The notes under the pieces: generated by a model
Databases searched by the model: none
What the model was told of the DNA's origin: nothing
The model's input: the letters and a program-made list of their open reading frames with translations, nothing else
Position numbers and translations under genes: made by a program
In this document: positions 7,793 through 16,790 of the stretch, one piece after another
Layout of the letters: each line of letters begins with the position of its first letter
How positions within the stretch are numbered: position 1 is the first letter of the stretch
Assembly (NCBI GenBank): GCA_012959435.1
Contig: DUDF01000015.1
Coordinates: 1-38,226 of the forward strand
DNA from: Candidatus Poseidoniales archaeon
GTDB taxonomy: Archaea; Thermoplasmatota; Poseidoniia; Poseidoniales; Thalassarchaeaceae
DNA: 38,226 bases
Direction of reading: 5' to 3'

Positions 7793-8290
7793 ATGGCTAC
7801 ACCACATGAGTTTAGCAACACCGGAGTTGAAGCCATGCCAGAACCACCAATGATTCTCAATAATGACGAATATGATGAAATTGAAAACGCGATTATTTCA
7901 ACAGAAGAACTCGGTGCAAAAGTTCGCCAACTTTTCCGCAACAATTCTGATGATGATGTTTACGACATTTCGTGGGAAGTAGATGCCGCGGTAGAAGCGT
8001 TAGATGTCTTTGCATCACGTTGGACAATTGAGATTCTTGCCACACTGTACATTGCTGGTGAGCGCCGCTTCAATGAACTGCGCCGATTACTAGTAGGAAT
8101 TTCTAGCAGAACTTTGTCTGATAAGTTAACTACCCTGAGATTGTCTGGATTTGTTGATCGTATCGTGATTGATGGCCCACCTGTGAAAGTCACCTACAAA
8201 CTTACAGACCATGGTCGACGTTCAGGACGCCTTCTTAGTCCATTAGTTGCATATATGAAACTCAACAATGAAAGCGTCAAGAAAGCGTGA
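7793..8290 (+). CDS. HxlR-family winged-helix transcriptional regulator
   Basis: 165-residue DNA-binding protein. Residues ~65-160 form an HxlR/MarR-type winged helix: ALDVFASRWTIEILATLYIA (helix 1), GERRFNELRRLLVGISSRTL with SDKLTTLRLSGFVDR (helix-turn-helix), then IVIDGPPVKVTYKLTDHGRR (wing) and a C-terminal helix. The pattern RF-EL-R-L-GIS-RTLS-KL-L---G is diagnostic of HxlR. An unusual acidic N-terminal extension of ~60 residues has no cysteine, unlike the redox-sensing members of the family. It is followed after 13 nt by another regulator gene, so the two may form an operon. The target is unknown, and autoregulation through the palindrome at 7749-7762 is possible. Confidence 0.88.
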   Translation: MATPHEFSNTGVEAMPEPPMILNNDEYDEIENAIISTEELGAKVRQLFRNNSDDDVYDISWEVDAAVEALDVFASRWTIEILATLYIAGERRFNELRRLLVGISSRTLSDKLTTLRLSGFVDRIVIDGPPVKVTYKLTDHGRRSGRLLSPLVAYMKLNNESVKKA

Positions 8291-8303
8291 AATTTGGTGA
8301 AAA

Positions 8304-9005
8304 ATGCTGGTCACCGCACCAACACATACAATAGGGACCGGCAACAGAAGTAATCCTATGGCATTACTGAAGCAGTTAGGTGGCCGTCATGCTTTGTTTG
8401 GTGTCGCGGTTGCTGGATTAACTGGATTTGGTTCGTTAGCCGCAGGCATATTACCTTGGAATTGGTCAATTTCCGGTACTATTAGTTCATCTCACAATCG
8501 CAGTTGGGAGCACCCACTGCGAAGTAAAATCCTCGACACCCTCGGCTCAAACCCAGGGATTTGCTACCGCCAATTACAACGTAATCTCGATGTTGCAAAT
8601 GGGACTTTACGCCACCATCTTGATGTGTTGCAAACACAAAAAACTGTTACCACAATGCCAGTTAATGGTAGAACTTGCTACTACGCGGGGGCACCAAGTC
8701 AGATTGAGATTCTTCGAGACATGAATATCAAGGATGAGCAAGCAGCAGAGATGCTACCTGTTGGGCTATCACAAGTTCAGCGAGAAGTTGTCACACGCCT
8801 AGTTCAAGACCCCTTGCCAAAATCCCAAGCCTCACTGGCTCGCGACATCAGTCGCAGTCGTGCTTCTGTAAACAGCGCAATACTCGTGCTCCGCCGACGA
8901 GGTATTCTATCATGCCACGACCTAGATTTGGCTGAACACCTACATGGGCTACGTACTGGAACTCTTGATTACGAGTGGATTGATGAGCGACCTATTGCCG
9001 CATGA
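8304..9005 (+). CDS. Membrane-anchored tandem winged-helix regulator
   Basis: 233 residues. The N-terminus contains one likely membrane helix, ALFGVAVAGLTGFGSLAAGI (about residues 30-50). A first winged helix follows: HPLRSKILDTLGSNPGICYR, then LQRNLDVANGTLRHHLDVLQ and a wing containing GRTCYYAG. The second is LSQVQREVVTRLVQDP with SQASLARDISRSRASVNSAI and LVLRRRGILS. Two DNA-binding domains behind a membrane helix recur in archaeal one-component regulators. GGTGA lies 4 nt before the ATG at 8304, and an internal ATG at 8358 would keep both domains and the helix. It lies just downstream of the HxlR gene. The signal and targets are unknown. Confidence 0.78.
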   Translation: MLVTAPTHTIGTGNRSNPMALLKQLGGRHALFGVAVAGLTGFGSLAAGILPWNWSISGTISSSHNRSWEHPLRSKILDTLGSNPGICYRQLQRNLDVANGTLRHHLDVLQTQKTVTTMPVNGRTCYYAGAPSQIEILRDMNIKDEQAAEMLPVGLSQVQREVVTRLVQDPLPKSQASLARDISRSRASVNSAILVLRRRGILSCHDLDLAEHLHGLRTGTLDYEWIDERPIAA

Positions 9006-9132
9006 ACCACTAATTCGTGACTGAATTGACTTTGAAAAATCGCTTTGATGGAAGGCACTCCGCGTTAAGTAGTGCTGAATCAGCAAATAGTATCAATAGC
9101 ACTTAGAACCGACCCACTTCGCCAGTCACTAG

Positions 9133-10215
9133 ATGTTGAGACTTCGTCTTGAGCAACACCCAGCCCCTACAGGTAAGAAAGATGCTGACATGCTTCTAGC
9201 TTGGCTCCTTGATACACTTGGATTGGTGCGCCGACGCAATGATACTAATTCTACAGGCGCAACTCAACGACCACTTCACAGGTTAATGCGAGACCATTTG
9301 GTAAAAGAACCAATGAAAGGGGTTGATGCAAAGACATTAGCGGACCAACTAGGAATCAGTATGACCGCTCTTCACCATCATCTGAAAGGACTTCAATCTG
9401 TCAGAATTGTCGCCTCCAAAATTGGTGAAAATGGATGGCAGATGCACCACCTTCGTTGCGGTTCTCTTTCATCAGCCATCGACCTCCTACATTTGGAAGT
9501 CCGAGGAATACTCGCTCTACGCCTTGCCCCACTCAAAGAATGGCAAACAGGCTCAGTAACTCAGGAAGGTGACACTGACACAGATGTCCCAGACCTCAAA
9601 CTGCGAATCTGCGAACCTCGCCCTCTGCAAGGAAAAGAGGATGAAATAGATTCATTCCTGAATGATTTTGGTCTACGGGGAGAACGCCCTAAGCAAATAA
9701 GTGGCAACGATCTCACCCGCCTTATTTTTGAAAAAATGCTATCAGCAAATCACCCAATTTCACTGGACGAAGCGGTCGCTGAATGGGGGGCTACTCGCCC
9801 AAGACTGGCTAGAACTTTTGACCGCTTCAGGGCTGCTGGTTTGGCAGAACGAGTACTTCGCCATGACCGACTTTCAGTAATTCTCTGGGATGGACTCTCG
9901 ACCCAATATACTCGACGAGGGGAACAGTGGTTACTCACTAAAGGTGGATTAAGCAGATTAGACAAGAAAGTGGTTAAACAGATCACAAAATCTCTGCGAG
10001 AAAACAAATTTGATTCAGAACGATGTGCTGAACTTTTCTCTTCTGTAAGCATTGAGCAACAACGTTTGGCCATAAATCTCCTAGGGGGGCGCCTTCCTTA
10101 CGGATACAGACTCTCTGGCAGTTCAGGGGAAGATGTAGCCCGCCAAGTATCACAACGGGTTGAGAGCATATTCAGTCGATTAAAGCGAGTTGCTTCAACC
10201 ATTGATGACTTGTAA
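9133..10215 (+). CDS. Winged-helix protein with two predicted DNA-binding domains
   Basis: 360-residue probable transcription factor. An N-terminal ArsR-like winged helix covers about residues 55-110 (RLMRDHLVKEP, then DAKTLADQLGISMTALHHHL and KGLQSVRIVASK). A second, weaker one lies around 205-275 (LTRLIFEKMLSANHPISLDE, then RPRLARTFDRFRAAGLAERV, and a wing ending YTRRGEQWLLTKGG). The C-terminal 80 residues are basic and helical. There is no clear membrane helix, though residues 20-32 are hydrophobic. An alternative ATG at 9190 would remove the first 19 residues. It is the third regulator in a row on this strand, after a 127-nt gap in which no gene or clear promoter is visible. Regulon unknown. 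Confidence 0.72.
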   Translation: MLRLRLEQHPAPTGKKDADMLLAWLLDTLGLVRRRNDTNSTGATQRPLHRLMRDHLVKEPMKGVDAKTLADQLGISMTALHHHLKGLQSVRIVASKIGENGWQMHHLRCGSLSSAIDLLHLEVRGILALRLAPLKEWQTGSVTQEGDTDTDVPDLKLRICEPRPLQGKEDEIDSFLNDFGLRGERPKQISGNDLTRLIFEKMLSANHPISLDEAVAEWGATRPRLARTFDRFRAAGLAERVLRHDRLSVILWDGLSTQYTRRGEQWLLTKGGLSRLDKKVVKQITKSLRENKFDSERCAELFSSVSIEQQRLAINLLGGRLPYGYRLSGSSGEDVARQVSQRVESIFSRLKRVASTIDDL

Positions 10216-12041: not shown

Positions 12042-13277
12042 ATGGGTGACTCTTCATCAGCCAGTGCCGTCTCTTCAGACGGCTCAAACACAGGTCGAAA
12101 ATCTAAATTATTCGATGCATCACCGAGTGATGATGGAATTTGGCGAGACTCAGAAGGAGTCGCACTACCAGTTTCAGCAAGCGACTTAGAACGTCATGCT
12201 TATTGCCCGCTCTCATGGAAATTAGCTCGCTCGGGTGTAAAAGGTTCAGGCGATGCTATTGAACTCGGAAAACAGCGACACAAAGAAATCGAAATAGCGA
12301 TGACACATTACCAAAATCATGATTTGAAAGCAAGAAGAGAGATGGTTATCTGGACATGGTGGTTCGCAATTGTGGTTACTTTAACCATTGACACTACGGC
12401 ATTTTTCTTTGTGGAGGAGGGAATGATTACTGATATCAACTTTGGCCGCTTTGCTCGCTACCTTGCTCTTCTCGCCTTTGTTTGGTTAATCTTGGCAATA
12501 CTTCTATTGCTCATCCCATGGAGAAGATATCTTGGGACACCTTTTGGTTTGGCTCAGCCACCAACACCTTCTGAATTTAATATTGTTGACCTTGAACTAT
12601 ACTTATTTGAGAAACAAGACTCACATCCTGGTGGCTGGTGGGCTGGAGGAAAGGTTGAGTTCACAATCCTACTCGGGAGCATGACAATTGCTCTGCACGG
12701 ATTAGCACTGTTTGTGGCGCAACAGCGCTCAATAGCAACTTTTGTCCTATTGGTGGCTACACTAGGTTGGACTCTTATCGCATCTTGGCAACTTCACAAA
12801 GGATTGCTTGCAAATATTCGTGTTGAAGAAAAAGGCAAGGAACTTGGAATTGATAGTGGTTCTGTACTAGCATACAACGATGACTCAACTTCATCTGATC
12901 TTCTCAAAGACGACACTACAGGAATTAGAGGTCGGCCGGACCAAATCATCATCTTTGAAAATGATGTGGTACCAGTAGAACAAAAGACTGGAAAAATCCC
13001 TTCACAACCACACTTTAGTCATAAATTACAGGTATACGCTTATCTTCATCTTGTATCAAAAATAACCAATAATCAACTCAGGTATGGCATACTCCGTTAC
13101 GGAGATGATGCGATTCACAAAATTATTTGGGGAGATGGTGAAAGTAAAGTCCTGATGAAACACTTGAAAGAAATTCAAAGATTGATGGTAGAGGATGATG
13201 CTAAAAGAGACCACGATAGACCGGGGAAATGCCGAAATTGCTCTCGACGGCATCGCTGCCCAGAAGCACTTGACTAA
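12042..13277 (+). CDS. Cas4/RecB-like PD-(D/E)XK nuclease split by four transmembrane helices
   Basis: 411 residues. The outer parts match Cas4-type nucleases: SASDLERHAYCPLSWKLAR (Cys55), ELGKQRHKEIE (His80), RGRPDQIIIF (Asp300), VPVEQKTGK (Glu313, Lys315), LQVYAYLHL (Gln330, Tyr332) and a C-terminal cysteine cluster CRNCSRRHRC (397, 400, 406). With Cys55 this gives the four cysteines that hold an iron-sulfur cluster in Cas4 and AddB. Between His80 and Asp300 lie four hydrophobic segments (~102-124, 139-162, 207-226, 230-250). An even number of crossings would leave both halves in the cytoplasm, able to form one active site at the membrane. There is no cas1, cas2 or CRISPR array nearby, so a role in spacer acquisition is not supported. 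The substrate is unknown. It lies 98 nt after rps2 and overlaps the convergent lipoprotein gene by its stop codon. Confidence 0.75.
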   Translation: MGDSSSASAVSSDGSNTGRKSKLFDASPSDDGIWRDSEGVALPVSASDLERHAYCPLSWKLARSGVKGSGDAIELGKQRHKEIEIAMTHYQNHDLKARREMVIWTWWFAIVVTLTIDTTAFFFVEEGMITDINFGRFARYLALLAFVWLILAILLLLIPWRRYLGTPFGLAQPPTPSEFNIVDLELYLFEKQDSHPGGWWAGGKVEFTILLGSMTIALHGLALFVAQQRSIATFVLLVATLGWTLIASWQLHKGLLANIRVEEKGKELGIDSGSVLAYNDDSTSSDLLKDDTTGIRGRPDQIIIFENDVVPVEQKTGKIPSQPHFSHKLQVYAYLHLVSKITNNQLRYGILRYGDDAIHKIIWGDGESKVLMKHLKEIQRLMVEDDAKRDHDRPGKCRNCSRRHRCPEALD

Positions 13278-14029: not shown

Positions 14030-16717
14030 TCAATCTTCACTATCTTTGCGGCGGCGTTTTGGACGGCGGCGTTTATTGGTGCTTGCCGGTTCATCGGCAA
14101 TATCAGAGGTCTTTGCAGACGGCAGAGGGTCTGCATCTCCTACGGAGAAGTCTGTAACATCTTTTTTATCCTTCAACACATTACCGACTACAGTATTATC
14201 TGTAATAAATTCAACTTCAACCTCTTGACCAGGCAAAATTCCTTTCTCACCCGTGATCTCAAAGATATCAGCACGGATGTCTGCATCTGACGCGCTTAAC
14301 TCTACATCGGAATCTTGGATATGACGGCGGCCCTCTTTGTCACCAATGATATCGTCAAGGTCAACTCGGTCCTTTTCATGTGCCGTTCGCATTGATGTAA
14401 TCACCAATTCATCCTCTGCCTCTCCTTCAGTCAATTCAACTTCTTGGTCGCGGTCAGCTATTGCAGCATCAATTTCTTGCTCAGCCTCTGTAAGGTGATC
14501 ATCCCAATCGGACTCCAATTGATCCTCTGCATATCCCATTTCAGAAATTGCATTATCATAATCTTCAGCGCCTTGCACAATCTCATCATCATCTTCCTGA
14601 ATCTCATCCTCGGCATCCTCTTGAATGATTTCCTTCCGAGTACGGCGCTCGTAGAAGGATGATACATCCTGAACATCCCCACAGTATGGGCAGTACTCCA
14701 TTACATCTGGGATGTTAGAATTACAAGATTTGCAATCATGGAATTGTGATAAGCCTTCAACCAGATTAAACTCACAGTATGGACAAACCTCCTCATCCCC
14801 TTCAATCTCCCCATCGCACGATGGACAGTAATCGTAGGTTTCTCTCTCGTTTTCTTCAGAATTGACCCTTGTCAACTGAATTGCCGCCCCTAGAATAATG
14901 ATTAACAATAGACCAGCAAATACGAACATGAATGTTGCCGCTGTGAAATTTGATGATTCAGCCTGCGGACCATCGTTACCAGTGGCTGAAATTGACCATG
15001 CTGCAGTCCAAGTTGCTACAGAACTCCCTGCAGGAATAATATACAACTCAAAAGGACCTGTATTAACCGCTTTAAAACTACAAAGTACCGTATTATTACC
15101 ATTTGATGTAGTGAAATTGAGTGATGTTGTGCTCAGCACCTCCCCTTCCACATGGTCAAGGCAGGTGAATACCTCACTCCCCGTACCCTCATCAGAAACA
15201 ATATCAATTGTGTATGTGTATGTGTTCCCAACTACCAATGGCGTGTGAGCAGGAGTCCAGCTCTCACTTTCTTGGAGGAATCTCAATCGGAGATTACTGT
15301 GCAAGGATACTGAACCAAATGCAGTATTATCGTTAGTATTTGAATCGTAACTAATAGCATTCGCTTGCCAACTTGCACTAAATTGCAAAGACCCTGATTC
15401 CCCACTAGAACCTACTACTGTAAATGTGAAAGTACGCTCTTCTCCGCCTGGAATTCCCAACCCCAACAATGGCTGCAATGAGTTCCCATCAAATGAAGCT
15501 GATAAATCACCAATCACAGTGATTGAGCCGGTATTTGTTACTGTCACATCAAAATCAACCTGTTCACCTGATAGAATAGAATCACTCGATGCTGAGGCGT
15601 AAGGTGACACTACCACATTAGGTTCAGGATGGATTGTGAATTGAGCGTCAAGTTCGTCATTGAACTGTATTGATTGAGGAACTTGCCTACTTGGGTCAAT
15701 ACGCACTCTCAATGTGTGAATACCTGGCTCAAGTAATGGCATTTGAGACAAAGACAATTGTTGTTCCCATCCTTGAACTGTGGCACTATCACTAAAAGTC
15801 AAATCAAAGGTAATTACGCTAGTTTCGATTTCACCATCAATCAGATAGATTCCTACTGCGATGGTACTATCTCCACTTCCACCCATTCGAAGAATTTCAC
15901 CATTAATAGTCCAAGGCCCATTAAGCGTACCAAGATCTGAAACCACAGTAATCTCAGGATTTGGTTGCTGGTGGTGAAGATAATCAGGGCTAGATATGAC
16001 AGTGAATTGTGCAGGTGTTGCCGCATTATTACTGGTGTCTGATTCAGCAATTCCATCAGCCGCTGAATTTGCTATTGCACTAATCTGATGATTCCCAGCC
16101 GCGGGCGCATTGAATGTAGTTTGGATAGTTGTTGAGATACCAACAAGTAAAGGCGATATCTGAAGTTCTTGCAGAGGAGCCCCATCAAGTTGAATCAGTA
16201 GGTGCGATGATGGTGCACCAAGGTTTCCTTGATTAGTAACATCAATTGAAAGATTTACAATATCTCCTTGGTGTAAATCCGCTGATGGAGTGAGGATAAT
16301 ATTACTGGCAATTAAATCGGTTTTTCCTGAAACTTGGAACTCCTTAGATACTGAATTATTTAACCCGTTATGTGTGACAACAAGAACAACTGAATGAGTC
16401 CCAAACGGAACATTTGACCAAGTACCTGTGACTTGAACAAACCCATCGCCAGCGATACCCACTGTCTCAGTATGGAACGCAGTATTTGCTTGACTATCCG
16501 GGTGTAGGGAAACTTCAACGTTTATGATACTTGATGAAATATCATTTGTTAGTGTCGCTGTAACTTCAATATCATCGCCTTCGGCTGGAGATGATGGCGA
16601 TATTGCAAGACCATCAACGCTGAAATTGACATCCCCAGCACTAACAGCACCAATAACTGGAACCAACAATAGAAGTAGTAAAATCCCAGATGTGGTGATG
16701 GCTGAAGCCCGCCCCAT
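14030..16717 (-). CDS. Secreted CARDB-like repeat protein with membrane helix and cytoplasmic zinc ribbons
   Basis: About 895 residues. The signal peptide is ITTSGILLLLLLVPVIGAVS. It is followed by ~560 residues of repeated beta-sandwich units resembling CARDB domains (repeated patterns such as GDxVxxxVTVTNxG, for example HQGDIVNLSIDVTNQGNLG and SGEQVDFDVTVTNTGSI). One membrane helix sits at ~590-613 (FMFVFAGLLLIIILGAA). After it come two zinc ribbons, CPSC-x9-CPYC and CKSC-x10-CPYC (~628-680), then a very acidic, Glu-rich probable coiled coil and a basic tail KRRRPKRRRK. Topology is outside-domain, helix, inside zinc ribbons. The frame is open further upstream only with TTG, so the ATG at 16717 is used. 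It is divergent from another surface protein. A link between an external adhesive or binding part and an internal partner is plausible but unproven. Confidence 0.75.
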   Translation of the reverse strand: MGRASAITTSGILLLLLLVPVIGAVSAGDVNFSVDGLAISPSSPAEGDDIEVTATLTNDISSSIINVEVSLHPDSQANTAFHTETVGIAGDGFVQVTGTWSNVPFGTHSVVLVVTHNGLNNSVSKEFQVSGKTDLIASNIILTPSADLHQGDIVNLSIDVTNQGNLGAPSSHLLIQLDGAPLQELQISPLLVGISTTIQTTFNAPAAGNHQISAIANSAADGIAESDTSNNAATPAQFTVISSPDYLHHQQPNPEITVVSDLGTLNGPWTINGEILRMGGSGDSTIAVGIYLIDGEIETSVITFDLTFSDSATVQGWEQQLSLSQMPLLEPGIHTLRVRIDPSRQVPQSIQFNDELDAQFTIHPEPNVVVSPYASASSDSILSGEQVDFDVTVTNTGSITVIGDLSASFDGNSLQPLLGLGIPGGEERTFTFTVVGSSGESGSLQFSASWQANAISYDSNTNDNTAFGSVSLHSNLRLRFLQESESWTPAHTPLVVGNTYTYTIDIVSDEGTGSEVFTCLDHVEGEVLSTTSLNFTTSNGNNTVLCSFKAVNTGPFELYIIPAGSSVATWTAAWSISATGNDGPQAESSNFTAATFMFVFAGLLLIIILGAAIQLTRVNSEENERETYDYCPSCDGEIEGDEEVCPYCEFNLVEGLSQFHDCKSCNSNIPDVMEYCPYCGDVQDVSSFYERRTRKEIIQEDAEDEIQEDDDEIVQGAEDYDNAISEMGYAEDQLESDWDDHLTEAEQEIDAAIADRDQEVELTEGEAEDELVITSMRTAHEKDRVDLDDIIGDKEGRRHIQDSDVELSASDADIRADIFEITGEKGILPGQEVEVEFITDNTVVGNVLKDKKDVTDFSVGDADPLPSAKTSDIADEPASTNKRRRPKRRRKDSED

Positions 16718-16790
16718 ATACACACAAGACAACATACTGCACTTCAACCCTGCTGATTGATGCCGTAGGCCATCCGTCGTACACAACAAG

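What the first reader, a model, noticed from the sequence alone, without database searches (positions are those of the whole stretch)
12042..13277. Cas4/RecB-like nuclease whose catalytic domain is split by four membrane helices
The sequence shows Cas4 motifs in order (Cys55, His80, Asp300, Glu313-x-Lys315, Gln330-Tyr332, three C-terminal Cys), but about 150 residues with four hydrophobic segments sit between His80 and Asp300. An even number of crossings would bring both halves together on one side, placing an iron-sulfur nuclease on the inner membrane face. No CRISPR or cas genes are near, so the role is probably not spacer acquisition. DNA uptake, phage DNA degradation at entry, or chromosome handling at the membrane are open possibilities.
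Basis: partly seen in the sequence, partly recalled or inferred. Interest (0 to 1): 0.78.

Follow-up and report, generated by a model that had tools for sequence, protein, structure and literature searches.

The report
Membrane-embedded Cas4 nuclease, fold split
A DNA-cutting enzyme related to the CRISPR protein Cas4 has had its catalytic domain interrupted by membrane-spanning hairpins throughout an archaeal phylum (always two, four or eight spans, and in some lineages the protein is even broken into two genes in the outer loop), which pins it to the inner face of the cell membrane and points to an unstudied way of processing DNA there.

Summary
Window 12042-13277 (+) encodes a 411-aa protein with every Cas4/AddB-type catalytic residue and all four Fe-S cysteines, interrupted by four hydrophobic helices between His80 and Asp300; these residues are invariant in 27 Poseidoniales homologues. 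It is not a local oddity. Homologues across Thermoplasmatota carry 2, 4 or 8 membrane spans at the same place in the fold, built from repeated two-helix hairpins. Each family keeps one number, and the spacings from first Cys to membrane and from membrane to catalytic Asp stay constant. In families f16 and f27 (f6 partly) the gene is naturally split in two at the external loop: gene 1 = Cys1 + His + one span; gene 2 = one span + catalytic core + three Cys. Positive charges sit on the nuclease side. A 2-span homologue models as one confident fold (pLDDT 90.8, pTM 0.86). CRISPR and ComEC are absent from the host clade; no viral copies were found. In 10/10 f27 genomes the split genes sit in an SMC-ScpA operon; in five families next to a TPD/CDIN1-type gene. 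Best reading: a membrane-tethered solo-Cas4 processing chromosomal DNA at the inner membrane face. Function is inferred; entry-point defence remains a serious rival. New variant of a known kind.

The parts
12042..13277 (+). Membrane-embedded solo-Cas4 (PD-(D/E)XK, RecB/AddB type) gene, 411 aa
12171..12326 (+). N-terminal half of the nuclease (residues 44-95): S-A-S-D-L-E-R-H-x-Y-C55 motif and His80 helix
   Evidence: invariant residues in 27 Poseidoniales homologues; same segment of homologues aligns to type I-C Cas4 8d3l residues 12-57 and to the start of the PDDEXK_1 profile
12348..12413 (+). Membrane helix 1 (residues 103-124)
   Evidence: hydropathy; in the model one continuous helix 71-123 runs from the His80 region into the membrane
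12453..12515 (+). Membrane helix 2 (residues 138-158)
   Evidence: model helix 131-157
12651..12719 (+). Membrane helix 3 (residues 204-226), with invariant His219
12726..12794 (+). Membrane helix 4 (residues 229-251)
12909..13274 (+). C-terminal half of the nuclease (residues 290-411): Asp300, Glu313-x-Lys315, Gln330/Tyr334, Cys397-x2-Cys400-x5-Cys406
   Evidence: Pfam PDDEXK_1 and Cas_Cas4; invariant residues
12204..12206 (+). Cys55, first ligand of the predicted Fe-S staple
12279..12281 (+). His80, predicted active-site His
12939..12941 (+). Asp300, predicted metal ligand of the active site
12978..12986 (+). Glu313-x-Lys315, catalytic motif
13230..13259 (+). Cys397, Cys400, Cys406, remaining ligands of the predicted Fe-S staple

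Best explanation
This is a solo-Cas4-type nuclease (RecB/AddB/Dna2-like PD-(D/E)XK fold with a predicted four-Cys iron-sulfur staple). Its fold is interrupted, between the His helix and the catalytic Asp strand, by repeated transmembrane hairpins, so the assembled nuclease body sits on the cytoplasmic face of the cell membrane. Shown by sequence: catalytic and Cys residues, place of the insertion, even span number, fixed spacing, phylum-wide distribution. Strongly inferred: one fold, cytoplasmic side. Inferred from the family: metal-dependent exonuclease or flap-type cutting of single-stranded or branched DNA ends. Least certain: the purpose. I think it is a housekeeping enzyme that resects or trims DNA ends and branched intermediates of the chromosome where DNA is held at the membrane (replication, segregation, recombination). 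That rests on its operon with SMC-ScpA in one family, its adjacency to a TPD/CDIN1-type PD-(D/E)XK protein in five families, its mostly single-copy, lineage-stable inheritance and its absence from the virus collections and CRISPR loci searched.
For: Nuclease identity: Pfam/NCBIfam, invariant residues, Foldseek best hits type I-C Cas4, MGME1 and Dna2. One fold: PDDEXK_1 matches residues 12-273 of a 2-span homologue over profile 2-246; N and C halves align colinearly to 8d3l 12-57 and 102-202; AF2 pLDDT 90.8, pTM 0.86 for the 2-span form. Same side: 2, 4 or 8 spans, split forms with 1+1; K+R density 0.20-0.26 on the nuclease side against 0.06-0.10 outside, bias in 67 of 75 proteins. Fixed geometry: Cys1 to first span 43-56 residues and last span to G-x-P-D 39-53 residues whatever the span number. 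Chromosome link: SMC-ScpA-cas4N-cas4C-TyrRS in 10/10 f27 genomes, TPD-cas4 adjacent in 8/8 loci of five families, SMC and TPD identified by Pfam/NCBIfam, ScpA weakly. A C-terminal TRAM nucleic-acid-binding domain is fused in one homologue. Usually a single copy per genome; no viral or plasmid copies at the sensitivity used; Cas1 in 1/99 and ComEC in 0/99 genomes of the class.
Against: No activity, localisation or iron-sulfur cluster is measured. The SMC and TPD associations are each limited to particular lineages; in Poseidoniales the neighbours are ribosomal protein S2 and a dihydrouridine synthase, with divergent orientation in one relative. Seven Thalassarchaeaceae genera lack the gene, and those of them that were tested keep SMC and TPD, so it is dispensable and not obligately coupled to them. 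The window protein's own model is weaker (pLDDT 69.7, pTM 0.56). Spans were called by hydropathy, not a trained topology predictor. Non-conserved context is equally expected of a housekeeping enzyme with another role.
Confidence: 0.5

Rival explanations
1. Entry-point defence: the membrane nuclease degrades linear foreign DNA as it is injected or enters, like the membrane-anchored PD-(D/E)XK (RmuC-domain) protein ShdA of the Shield anti-phage system.
For: Membrane-tethered PD-(D/E)XK nucleases with a cytoplasmic nuclease domain do defend against phage (ShdA, PMC10270631). The Poseidoniales hosts lack CRISPR adaptation. Patchy loss in streamlined genera would suit a costly defence.
Against: No defence genes among the neighbours read; span class constant within each family and mostly single-copy, unlike typical defence genes. 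SMC-ScpA operon in one family.
Confidence: 0.25
2. The membrane domain is a sensor or carries its own activity (binding an ion, cofactor or lipid signal) and gates the nuclease; the hairpins are more than an anchor.
For: Membrane helices as conserved as the nuclease N-half, with an invariant His219 and a nearly invariant Asp117 inside them. The span number grew in hairpin units up to 8, more than an anchor needs.
Against: The minimal form has just two spans, or one per subunit when split, and the polar positions differ between lineages. The hairpins gave no above-cut-off match to a known transporter or sensor family.
Confidence: 0.13
3. DNA uptake: the enzyme degrades one strand, or processes the end, of DNA imported through a membrane channel during natural transformation.
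Against: The ComEC channel family is absent from all 99 genomes of the class. No pilus or uptake gene seen in the neighbourhoods read.
Confidence: 0.05
4. Artefact or decayed gene: the reading frame is an accidental fusion of a membrane protein and a nuclease, or an inactive remnant.
For: One split pair (L092) has lost the catalytic residues in both halves while keeping the four Cys, and one genome has a second, frame-broken copy.
Against: Intact, conserved architecture in about 30 families, invariant catalytic and Cys residues.
Confidence: 0.02

Closest known systems
Solo-Cas4 nucleases (COG1468 / Pfam PF01930; e.g. Sso0001, Pcal_0546)
   Same: Same catalytic motifs, Q-h-x-x-Y, four Cys (1 + 3), encoded away from CRISPR loci, mostly vertical inheritance in archaea (PMC5704561, PMC12538437, PMC3466216).
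   Different: Described Cas4 proteins are soluble as far as I know; in the full text of the family survey the word membrane occurs only in an unrelated gene name. Here the fold is interrupted by 2, 4 or 8 membrane spans, or split into two membrane proteins.
AddB / Dna2 / MGME1 nuclease domains
   Same: Same RecB-type nuclease fold; in AddB also the four-Cys Fe-S staple. Such a staple is what would hold the two halves together here.
   Different: They are soluble, and AddB and Dna2 are fused to or partnered with helicases; no helicase is fused or adjacent in the loci read here.
RmuC / ShdA (Shield) membrane-anchored PD-(D/E)XK proteins
   Same: Works alike in outline: a membrane-tethered, cytoplasm-facing nuclease of the same superfamily (PMC10270631).
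   Different: Single N-terminal anchor before an uninterrupted domain, a different family. Here the spans lie inside the catalytic domain.
CDIN1/C15orf41 (TPD domain, PF14811)
   Same: A neighbour, not a relative in the strict sense: an archaeal TPD gene lies directly upstream in five families; predicted PD-(D/E)XK protein resembling Hjc (PMC7261414).
   Different: Separate protein, no Cas4 match; its own nuclease activity has not been demonstrated.

Membership tests
Cas4 family (PF01930 / TIGR00372) | PD-(D/E)XK catalytic residues with RecB motif and Q-h-x-x-Y | tested here: met
   D300, E313-x-K315, Q330, Y334 invariant; PF01930 above cut-off
Cas4 family (PF01930 / TIGR00372) | Four conserved cysteines (one N-terminal, three C-terminal) | tested here: met
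   C55, C397, C400, C406 invariant; in split forms all 29 pairs keep 1 + 3
Cas4 family (PF01930 / TIGR00372) | Score above NCBI's cas4 equivalog cut-off (65 bits) | tested here: inconclusive
   Window protein 49 bits; homologues 82, 79 and 71 bits
Cas4 family (PF01930 / TIGR00372) | Fe-S cluster and exonuclease activity | not testable with these tools
   Needs purified protein
Cas4 family (PF01930 / TIGR00372) | Uninterrupted soluble domain (usual for known members, not a formal definition) | tested here: not met
   2, 4 or 8 spans inserted or gene split
CRISPR-associated Cas4 (CAS-Cas4) | Encoded beside cas1/cas2 | tested here: not met
   No Cas1 in the host genome or in any sampled Poseidoniales genome
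Solo-Cas4 | Cas4 outside CRISPR and mobile-element contexts, mainly vertical inheritance | tested here: met
   Housekeeping neighbours, no viral copy found, span class constant within families
RmuC/ShdA family | RmuC domain (Pfam) | tested here: not met
   No RmuC match among Pfam hits up to E = 1
ComEC-dependent DNA uptake | ComEC channel in the same genomes | tested here: not met
   PF03772 in 0 of 99 genomes of the class; controls positive in 10 of 14

The most novel reading that the evidence does not exclude
A phylum-wide membrane DNA-end-processing machine. The Cas4 fold is assembled at the membrane from two halves that, in some lineages, are separate membrane proteins joined by an iron-sulfur cluster ligated 1 + 3 across two chains, and it acts with condensin (SMC-ScpA) on DNA held at the membrane.
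Probability: 0.2. Interest if true: 0.92.

Novelty: new variant of a known kind. Interest (0 to 1): 0.74.

Why it matters
Solo-Cas4 is present in many archaea and its role is an open question. Here a whole phylum has fixed it to the membrane by inserting spans into the middle of the catalytic domain, which makes the question testable: where in the cell does a Cas4 work, and on which DNA? The split forms are a natural experiment suggesting that a PD-(D/E)XK fold can be assembled from two membrane proteins, possibly held by a shared Fe-S staple. The SMC-ScpA operon gives a concrete lead on archaeal chromosome handling at the membrane.

Tried and rejected
Phage and viral-contig searches with the protein and with two alignments found no relative; a plasmid search with a homologue gave only Bacillus Dna2/Cas4-domain proteins over the C-half. 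A single-sequence PDB search gave only spurious hits; the profile search worked. Foldseek of the window model aligned too few columns (148) to bridge the insertion, so it says nothing about packing of the N-half. That is why the 2-span homologue was modelled; its Foldseek hits to Cas4 are also only 120-160 columns, and the longer Dna2/AdnA alignments have large rmsd, so packing rests on pTM and the profile matches. Eighteen sequences scored 3 hydrophobic segments: they are relatives of 4-span forms with one helix just below the threshold and were not taken as odd counts. Programmed frameshifting as the explanation of the split genes was considered: in f27 the second gene usually starts at an ATG/GTG beside the stop in varying frames, which speaks for two genes; in f16 it is not excluded. 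A phyletic link of gene loss with SMC or TPD was tested and not found. The genome-wide PF01930 search of the own genome returned nothing at its threshold, so no additional Cas4 was detected. Occurrence outside Thermoplasmatota could not be tested with the scans left.

Full report
What is there. The window carries at 12042-13277 (+) a 411-residue ORF. Residues 293-407 match Pfam PDDEXK_1 and Cas_Cas4 above the curated cut-offs, and residues 43-110 match Exo5 weakly. Of 40 relative genomes 30 have a homologue. In an alignment of 27 sequences, C55, H80, D300, E313, K315, Q330, Y334, C397, C400 and C406 are all invariant. Four hydrophobic segments lie between H80 and D300. Their mean column identity (0.62-0.64) equals that of the nuclease N-half (0.65) and exceeds the loop between them (0.40), so the membrane part is under selection.

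It is phylum-wide. Profile searches of the class and of 293 genomes of the phylum found homologues in 186 of the latter. The matches to most families outside the order came in two pieces, because the insertion differs in length. Reading the proteins showed 2, 4 or 8 hydrophobic segments, always in the same place: 2 spans in eight families, 4 in about fifteen (including both Poseidoniales families), 8 in four. Family labels f1, f2 etc. are the tool's anonymous ones. One family, one number. Insert lengths fall in separate ranges (135-142, 191-249, 329-405 residues), while the distance from Cys1 to the first span (43-56) and from the last span to the G-x-P-D motif (39-53) does not depend on span number. 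Eighteen sequences scored three segments by the hydropathy threshold, but they are relatives of 4-span proteins with one borderline helix.

Built from hairpins. In many 4-span proteins the two hairpins resemble each other, with z-scores against shuffles up to 14, and a joint alignment shows a shared pattern ending in ...L-x-W-L-x-x-A-x-x-F-L-Y. The membrane part therefore appears to have grown by duplication of a two-helix unit. On a tree of the nuclease parts only, six changes of span class suffice; deep branches are weakly supported.

Naturally split genes. In f16 (18 loci) and f27 (10 genomes) the protein is encoded by two adjacent genes: gene 1 has Cys1, the His motif and one terminal span; gene 2 begins with one span and holds Asp, Glu-x-Lys, Gln-Tyr and three Cys. 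In f6 one pair was recognised, and other f6 genomes show at least the C-half with one span. The break falls in the outer loop. In f27 gene 2 usually starts at an ATG/GTG at or beside the stop of gene 1, in varying frames. In f16 a conserved GAGGTGAT precedes a stop-codon overlap where the possible start is often ATA; two loci have no ATG/GTG/TTG for 440 bases. Coupled initiation at a near-cognate codon or frameshifting could both explain that. Of 29 pairs, all keep the four Cys and 28 keep the catalytic residues; in the exception (L092) the His of half one and the Glu-x-Lys of half two are lost together, as expected if the two share one active site.

One fold, one side. The N-half aligns to residues 12-57 and the C-half to 102-202 of the solved type I-C Cas4 (8d3l), in order, the N-half match being weak. 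In a 2-span homologue PDDEXK_1 spans both halves in one match. That homologue models at pLDDT 90.8, pTM 0.86, with one 58-residue helix running from the His region through the membrane and a 39-residue helix returning. The window protein's model is weaker (69.7, 0.56), though its best solved relatives are again type I-C Cas4, MGME1 and Dna2. Lys+Arg density is 0.20-0.26 on the nuclease side and 0.06-0.10 on the other, with the bias in 67 of 75 proteins. Even counts, outer-loop fission and charge bias agree: both halves are cytoplasmic.

What it may do. The archaeal Cas4 Sso0001 is an Fe-S 5'-3' exonuclease on single-stranded DNA, proposed to resect ends (PMC3466216), and solo-Cas4 is expected to act mainly outside CRISPR (PMC5704561, PMC12538437). 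Here Cas1 is absent from the Poseidoniales sampled and present in 1 of 99 genomes of the class, and ComEC in none. No virus in the collections searched carries a detectable relative. Neighbourhoods are mostly unrelated housekeeping genes, with two exceptions. In all 10 f27 genomes the order is SMC - ScpA - cas4 N-half - cas4 C-half - TyrRS, on one strand. In all 8 loci from five families with 4 spans a TPD (CDIN1-like) gene lies directly upstream. SMC and TPD are clear by Pfam and NCBIfam; ScpA is supported by weak SMC_ScpA/Rad21 matches in two of the sequences scanned and by position. An 8-span homologue ends in a TRAM nucleic-acid-binding domain. These lean toward genome maintenance at the membrane. 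However, SMC and TPD are kept in genera that lost this gene, so the coupling is not obligate, and a membrane-bound PD-(D/E)XK nuclease with a defence role is known (ShdA, PMC10270631). I put genome maintenance near one half and entry-point defence near one quarter.

Novelty. No paper found in the library describes a membrane-embedded Cas4; the library is open-access only. NCBI's cas4 model already scores some of these proteins above its cut-off but does not cover the membrane part. It is a new variant of a known kind: the fold and motifs are Cas4's, while the interruption, the repeat growth and the split form are not features of described Cas4.

Limits.

Noticed in passing
L105-L109, L112, L115, L124 (f16 split loci), junction of the two genes: The second gene often lacks a standard start codon near its beginning; a conserved GAGGTGAT is followed by an ATAG overlap with the stop of gene 1, where a relative (L111) has ATGA. 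This suggests initiation at ATA coupled to termination, or a -1 frameshift.
   Followed up: partly
L092 (G259:C3, around 22964): A split pair in which both halves have lost catalytic residues (His; Glu-x-Lys; Gln) but all four cysteines remain; a relative in the same genus (L086) is intact. Possibly a structural pseudo-enzyme.
   Followed up: partly
G035:C6:85762-86948: A second, divergent copy of the gene broken over several frames with internal stops, in addition to the intact copy at C7.
   Followed up: no
Thalassarchaeaceae genera g4, g5, g6, g8, g9, g10, g11: Every genome sampled from these small-genome genera lacks the gene, while g1, g2, g3 and g7 keep it: a clean loss pattern usable for comparison.
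   Followed up: partly
L130, L131, L185-L192: SMC-ScpA-split cas4-TyrRS operon in all ten f27 genomes.
   Followed up: yes
L066:1465-3384: 8-span homologue with a C-terminal TRAM domain (PF01938, 1.3e-10).
   Followed up: partly
window 14030-16789 (-): 919-aa protein with a CARDB domain and zinc-ribbon-like matches near residues 655-704; its homologue lies beside the gene in the other Poseidoniales loci compared.
   Followed up: no
window 7793-10215 (+): Three consecutive helix-turn-helix proteins (HxlR type, HVO_0163 type, and a longer protein with weak HTH matches), with homologues in the other Poseidoniales loci compared.
   Followed up: no
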